Assembly (NCBI RefSeq): GCF_000179575.2
Contig: NC_015636.1
Location: forward strand, 1,589,495-1,653,494
Direction: 5' to 3'
Source of the DNA: Methanothermococcus okinawensis IH1
GTDB lineage: Archaea > AGJL01 > Methanococci > Methanococcales > Methanococcaceae
Length of the DNA stretch: 64,000 nt
The translations under genes were made by a program, and so were the position numbers. This document shows positions 31,341 to 33,976 of this stretch, piece by piece. The stretch's first letter is position 1. Each line of letters begins with the position of its first letter. A model generated the notes under the pieces. It did no database searches, was not told where the DNA came from, and saw nothing but the letters and a program-made list of their open reading frames with translations.

Positions 31341-31500
31341 AAATACCACAAATTAATCACTCACCTAAATAATTAGAATAAATTATATAATATATATAAA
31401 ATTATAAATTAATAAAATTATATAAAAAATATAAAAATAAATTTAGAATTTAAATTATAAAATTATAAATTCAATAATATTGTTATATCATTAAAAAAAG

Positions 31501-31560
31501 CGGTGTCAGCTCGCCCATCTTTCATCATAAATCAGAAGCTACTCCGGTCATCATCCACCA
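31501..31560 (-). ncRNA. C/D box sRNA (2'-O-methylation guide)
   Basis: Read on the minus strand, the element shows C box ATGATGA (31554-31548), D' box CTGA (31535-31532), C' box ATGATGA (31528-31522) and D box CTGA (31509-31506). A perfect GGTG/CACC terminal stem closes it (31559-31556 with 31505-31502). Both guides are exactly 12 nt: CCGGAGTAGCTT (D') and AAGATGGGCGAG (D). The N+5 rule predicts methylation of U in AAGCUACUCCGG and of the second C in CUCGCCCAUCUU; I could not assign the target RNAs. The patch is markedly G+C-rich within A/T-rich DNA, lying between the divergent radical SAM and thiL genes. Confidence 0.92.
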
Positions 31561-31654
31561 AAAGTATATTATAAAATACTGATATATATAGTTATTGAAT
31601 AATAAAATAAAATTTTATAATAATTAATAATTAGGTGTAATATTAGGTGAGCTC

Positions 31655-32772: not shown

Positions 32773-33976
<1,204 letters not shown>

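What the first reader, a model, noticed from the sequence alone, without database searches (positions are those of the whole stretch)
31501..31560. C/D box sRNA with two exact 12-nt guides between divergent genes
Box spacing is ideal, the terminal stem is perfect and the G+C-rich patch stands out. Both guides predict specific 2'-O-methylation sites by the N+5 rule.
Basis: seen in the sequence. Interest (0 to 1): 0.6.

Follow-up and report, generated by a model that had tools for sequence, protein, structure and literature searches.

The report
Guide RNA that modifies archaeal ribosomes
This is a real but ordinary archaeal small guide RNA, conserved across a whole order of methanogens, that most likely directs methyl groups onto the catalytic region of the large ribosomal RNA.

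Summary
On the MINUS strand, 31559-31502, lies a textbook archaeal C/D box sRNA: stem GGUG/CACC, C AUGAUGA, 12-nt guide, D' CUGA, 4-nt spacer, C' UGAUGA, 12-nt guide, D CUGA. It reaches Rfam's cut-off for sR2 (RF01139, 54.7 bits). Orthologues lie in 34 of 36 Methanococcales genomes, with covarying stem, TATA box and T-run.

Imperfect targets lie 120 nt apart in 23S domain V. The D guide forms 10 continuous pairs (two G-U), N+5 = C2630 (E. coli C2558, A-loop helix). The D' guide pairs 11 of 12, N+5 = U2510 (E. coli U2438). D pairing survives guide changes in 22 of 24 genomes; 29 of 3000 shuffled guide pairs do as well. Expression and methylation are untested. The one oddity: the D' guide stays imperfect at the same place throughout the order, and recurs at the other guide position in Micrarchaeota.

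The parts
31583..31590 (-). TATA-like element TATATATA, 36 nt before box C; puts a start site near 31560
   Evidence: Sequence; TATA-like matches cluster at -39 to -35 of box C in 31 order-wide loci, 26 of 45 matches
31556..31559 (-). 5' arm of terminal stem, GGUG
   Evidence: Pairs with 31502-31505; covaries in 34 orthologues
31548..31554 (-). box C, AUGAUGA
31536..31547 (-). D' guide CCGGAGUAGCUU; predicted target 23S 2506-2517, N+5 = U2510 (E. coli U2438)
31532..31535 (-). box D', CUGA
31522..31527 (-). box C', UGAUGA
31510..31521 (-). D guide AAGAUGGGCGAG; predicted target 23S 2626-2635, N+5 = C2630 (E. coli C2558)
31506..31509 (-). box D, CUGA
31502..31505 (-). 3' arm of terminal stem, CACC
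31493..31499 (-). T7 run, likely terminator
   Evidence: Sequence; T-run of 5 or more within 30 nt in 30 of 31 loci

Best explanation
An independently transcribed archaeal box C/D sRNA (Rfam sR2 family) on the minus strand. Inferred mechanism: L7Ae binds the C/D and C'/D' kink-turns, Nop5 and fibrillarin assemble on it, and the two guides pair with two 23S segments 120 nt apart in domain V. The D guide sets 2'-O-methylation at C2630 (E. coli C2558, 3' strand of A-loop helix 92), the D' guide at U2510 (E. coli U2438). Shown here: anatomy, conservation, stem covariation, complementarity. Inferred: transcription, protein binding, methylation, and any chaperoning of the peptidyl transferase region.
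For: Rfam sR2 above gathering score; box pattern 1 in the window, 0 of 100 shuffles; 34 of 36 genomes of the order, 27 of 27 good ones; stem arms GGTG/CACC 20, GGCG/CGCC 13, TGCG/CGCA 1 of 34; promoter and T-run; D guide 10 continuous pairs and D' guide 11 of 12, 120 nt apart in own LSU; N+5 paired in 24 of 24 (D') and 22 of 24 (D), with G/A next to box D always opposite U; joint null 29 of 3000.
Against: No perfect target. The D' run of 7 is reached by 291 of 300 shuffled guides, the D run by 33 of 300, the D total score by 134 of 300. Methanocaldococcus-type guides on the own rRNA: 137 of 3000 shuffles reach their joint score. By total score one tRNA site (7) beats the D site (6). The D' duplex has a central defect in every genome, and base 1 is unpaired in 11 of 24. 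The nine-consecutive-pair criterion of PMC4644070 is not met by either own guide. No expression or methylation data.
Confidence: 0.8

Rival explanations
1. A real C/D box sRNA, but its D guide acts on 16S rRNA (1259-1266, CUCGCCCA, N+5 = C1263) rather than on 23S helix 92.
For: Eight continuous Watson-Crick pairs in register in the own SSU; duplex energy -15.0 against -16.2 kcal/mol for the 23S site.
Against: The motif is absent from 10 of 24 SSUs (all Methanocaldococcus-type) and mispaired next to box D in 5 more, while the 23S site pairs in 22 of 24. No partner site for the D' guide close by was found.
Confidence: 0.1
2. A real C/D box sRNA whose D' guide only anchors (chaperones) the RNP on 23S, or acts on an RNA not scanned, so that only the D guide directs methylation.
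For: The D' duplex keeps a defect at position 8 or 9 in all 24 genomes with both partners, with 6-8 continuous pairs. Guides with a non-productive interaction are described in PMC4644070 (section read). SRP RNA, RNase P RNA and mRNAs were not scanned.
Against: N+5 is paired in 24 of 24, and pairs resume beyond the defect; the exact 12-mer complement exists nowhere else in the own genome.
Confidence: 0.25
3. A chance arrangement of boxes, or a decayed gene.
For: Expression is untested.
Against: 0 of 100 shuffles; kept in 34 of 36 genomes with stem covariation while the flanks differ.
Confidence: 0.01

Closest known systems
Rfam RF01139, sR2 (archaeal C/D box sRNA)
   Same: Scores above the gathering cut-off over the full model, 1-57 of 57; same box layout; control genomes that ring are M. 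jannaschii and S. acidocaldarius.
   Different: Guide letters differ from the Rfam consensus, notably at the 3' end of the D' guide, and a 2-nt gap lies in the D guide; only 15 of 36 orthologues pass the cut-off.
M. maripaludis C/D box sRNAs of Dennis et al. 2015 (PMC4644070)
   Same: Same order, and same class of RNA; domain V helices 90-93 are a methylation hotspot there (section 7 read).
   Different: That paper sees no guided site in the A-loop of M. maripaludis; the site predicted here is in the stem just below the loop. Its supplement was not read, so whether this sRNA is one of its seven is not known.
C/D sRNAs with the same guide in Micrarchaeota MAGs (L142, L143, L149-L153)
   Same: Same ten-letter guide next to a CUGA box; same 23S site in the 4 of 7 genomes with an LSU found.
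   Different: The guide sits in the C'-D interval, and the partner guide is unrelated: in 3 of 4 LSUs its best or joint-best site is the P-loop (N+5 at E. coli G2251), not the A-loop helix.

Membership tests
Archaeal box C/D sRNA | Boxes C, D', C', D in order with guides of about 12 nt | tested here: met
   kept in orthologues
Archaeal box C/D sRNA | Terminal stem closing a C/D kink-turn | tested here: met
   Four pairs, paired in 34 of 34, two of them through changes on both sides
Archaeal box C/D sRNA | Guide complementary to stable RNA through N+5 | tested here: met
   Imperfect but conserved: D 22 of 24, D' 24 of 24 paired at N+5; the nine-consecutive-pair criterion of PMC4644070 is not met in the own genome (D has 8 Watson-Crick pairs flanked by G-U, D' has 7)
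Archaeal box C/D sRNA | Binds L7Ae, Nop5 and fibrillarin; directs 2'-O-methylation | not testable with these tools
   Needs an experiment
Rfam RF01139 sR2 | Score at or above the gathering cut-off of 42 bits | tested here: met
   54.7 bits; 42.5 bits in the genome search
Rfam RF01139 sR2 | Same guides and targets as the other members of the family | not tested
   Alignment shows guide differences from the consensus; the targets of the other members were not looked up

The most novel reading that the evidence does not exclude
The D' guide CGGAGUAGCU is kept imperfect by selection: a central defect in its duplex with 23S AAGCUACCCCGG (A-C mismatch in most genomes, a U bulge in a subgroup) is maintained across an order and recurs in Micrarchaeota at the other guide position with another partner guide. 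The defect would tune product release, or the guide would serve folding of the peptidyl transferase region rather than methylation, and guides would move between positions and partners over long evolutionary distances.
Probability: 0.2. Interest if true: 0.45.

Novelty: new member of a known kind. Interest (0 to 1): 0.22.

Why it matters
[quoted passage not shown] PMC4644070 counts only 7 C/D sRNAs in M. maripaludis, so one kept in 27 of 27 good genomes of the order is probably important. If the persistent duplex defect is selected, it bears on how guide-target strength sets turnover.

Tried and rejected
Exact targets: AAGCTACTCCGG occurs only at the sRNA itself in the own genome. CTCGCCCATCTT was not searched genome-wide; in own SSU, LSU, two of three 5S and 37 tRNAs the D guide has no 12-pair site. 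tRNA targets: no tRNA gave a longer in-register run than the rRNA sites, though by total score one tRNA (L082) reaches 7 against 6 for the chosen D site; I preferred the continuous run through N+5 next to box D and its conservation. One search scanned two rRNA loci (L013, L015) in the wrong orientation and with flanks; one search replaces it. The 16S site was considered and ranked second. A target for the replaced D guide of G030-G032 was sought in two LSUs (G030, G032) without a convincing hit. A search for perfect-match guides beyond the order could not be made: the phylum search returned the same 36 genomes, and the one genome-contig scan had used a pattern that fixed the A, so the sharing of the mismatch with Micrarchaeota is partly ascertained. 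Literature listings: U2438 one paper, C2558 two, Micrarchaeota with snoRNA one, none on archaeal guides by its title; searches listed nothing on these two sites.

Full report
What is there. Read on the minus strand, window 31559-31502 is GGUG-G-AUGAUGA-CCGGAGUAGCUU-CUGA-UUUA-UGAUGA-AAGAUGGGCGAG-CUGA-CACC. All four boxes match consensus, both guides are 12 nt, and the terminal stem is four perfect pairs. The pattern (box C, guide, D', spacer, C', 12 nt, D) occurs once in the window and in 0 of 100 dinucleotide shuffles. Rfam at curated thresholds gives one match in the whole window: sR2, RF01139, minus strand, 54.7 bits against 42. A permissive scan of the surroundings lists 16 other families of archaeal C/D RNA on the same strand, all below their cut-offs.

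Setting. It lies between a radical SAM protein gene (minus; Pfam Radical_SAM) and a gene with the AIRS domain that I read as thiL (plus; the domain is, the gene name is recalled). A TATATATA stands 36 nt before box C and a T7 run follows the stem. In 31 order-wide loci, TATA-like matches cluster at -39 to -35 of box C (26 of 45 matches), and a T-run of 5 or more follows in 30 of 31 (three of the 34 orthologues, G030-G032, were not given to that call). In 7 of 31 loci both flanking genes lie on either side of the sRNA; in 2 more only thiL is found; in the other 22 neither is found in the loci of at most about 3 kb. So the gene is not tied to its neighbours.

Who has it. The family search finds sR2 in 34 of 36 genomes of the order, 27 of 27 of those at least 90% complete and at most 5% contaminated; the two misses are 81% and 54% complete; 15 of 36 pass the Rfam cut-off. 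A pattern of TGATGA, a free gap, the core GTAGCT and CTGA gives the same 34, one place each, and none for the reversed control.

Covariation. In 34 orthologues the stem arms are GGTG/CACC in 20, GGCG/CGCC in 13 and TGCG/CGCA in 1: every pair is kept, two of them through changes on both sides. These are few independent events, but with the conserved boxes they leave little doubt that this is a structured RNA.

Targets. Both guides were scanned, with a Watson-Crick pair required at N+5, against own SSU, LSU, two of three 5S and 37 tRNAs. The D guide's best run is 10 continuous pairs (two G-U) at LSU 2626-2635, N+5 = C2630. The D' guide's best total is 11 of 12 at LSU 2506-2517, N+5 = U2510, with A opposite C at position 8. 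By the matching sequence in E. coli K-12 23S these are C2558 and U2438. Shuffled guides that reach the observed value: D' run 291 of 300, D' total 8 of 300, D run 33 of 300, D total 134 of 300. Both guides together within 150 nt: 29 of 3000; for Methanocaldococcus-type guides on the own rRNA 137 of 3000. Single-genome statistics are therefore modest. What strengthens the D target is evolution: in 24 genomes with sRNA and both target regions, the D guide is paired at N+5 in 22, and the variable base next to box D is G or A opposite U, always a pair; G001 has a further G opposite U. The two exceptions (G030, G032) carry a different D guide, as does G031, for which no LSU was found. G011 has only a partial LSU without the regions and was not counted. 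The rival 16S site is absent from 10 of 24 SSUs and mispaired next to box D in 5 more.

The D' guide. It is paired at N+5 in 24 of 24, but its duplex always has a central defect: A opposite C at position 8 in 22 of 24, or in a subgroup (2 of these 24, 6 of all 34 sRNAs) a guide one base longer, which ViennaRNA pairs over 12 bases with one bulged U. Base 1 is unpaired in 11 of 24. In PMC7089733 (passages read) an optimum of 8-10 pairs, credited there to Yang et al. 2016, and an effect of the pair next to box D on product release are described, so an imperfect 12-pair duplex need not be defective. Whether the defect is selected or merely inherited cannot be told here.

Beyond the order. An exact scan of GTDB contigs for TGATGANCGGAGTAGCTNCTGA gave 15 stretches: 7 with the same whole architecture as here, 7 in which the unit is the C'-D half of another sRNA (6 titled Micrarchaeota, 1 titled Euryarchaeota), and one in the bacterium Cesiribacter, which chance could give by my own estimate of about 0.5. 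In 7 of 7 of the second kind a guide ending in YTCCAG(A/T) before CTGA stands upstream, in L150 with a longer spacer. An LSU was found for 4 of these 7; all 4 have AAGCTACCCCGG; in 3 of 4 the partner guide's best or joint-best site is the P-loop, N+5 at E. coli G2251. The scan says that it may leave out records, and its pattern fixed the A at position 8, so this is a sample and not a survey.

Literature. From PMC4644070 (abstract, sections 7, 9 and 16, and passages) I take the N+5 rule, the nine-pair criterion, the domain V hotspot, and that M. maripaludis has 7 C/D sRNAs with no guided site seen in its A-loop. In that paper E. coli U2552 is the first and C2556 the fifth loop base, so C2558 is in the stem below; the statements are compatible, but the paper does not confirm the site. 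Of PMC7994747 I saw the abstract and passages. The roles of L7Ae, Nop5 and fibrillarin are established knowledge of this class.

Verdict. A real, conserved member of a known RNA class with plausible, testable targets.

Noticed in passing
L142, L143, L149, L150, L151, L152, L153: C/D sRNAs of Micrarchaeota-type MAGs carry the same guide CGGAGUAGCU in the C'-D interval; their other guide ends in YUCCAG(A/U) and in 3 of 4 LSUs best fits the P-loop, N+5 at E. coli G2251.
   Followed up: partly
L108, L109, L110 (G030-G032): Three genomes of one related genus keep the D' guide but have a wholly different D guide, UUUUGAUCCUA; no convincing 23S target in the two LSUs scanned.
   Followed up: partly
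L012 (G008:C63): A second, weaker sR2-like C/D sRNA with other guides (20 bits, below cut-off) in a genome of the own genus.
   Followed up: no
window 32773-33183: Short exosortase-family membrane protein (Pfam Exosortase_EpsH), whose reading frame overlaps the start of an RsmB/F-type rRNA methyltransferase gene at 33140-33976.
   Followed up: no
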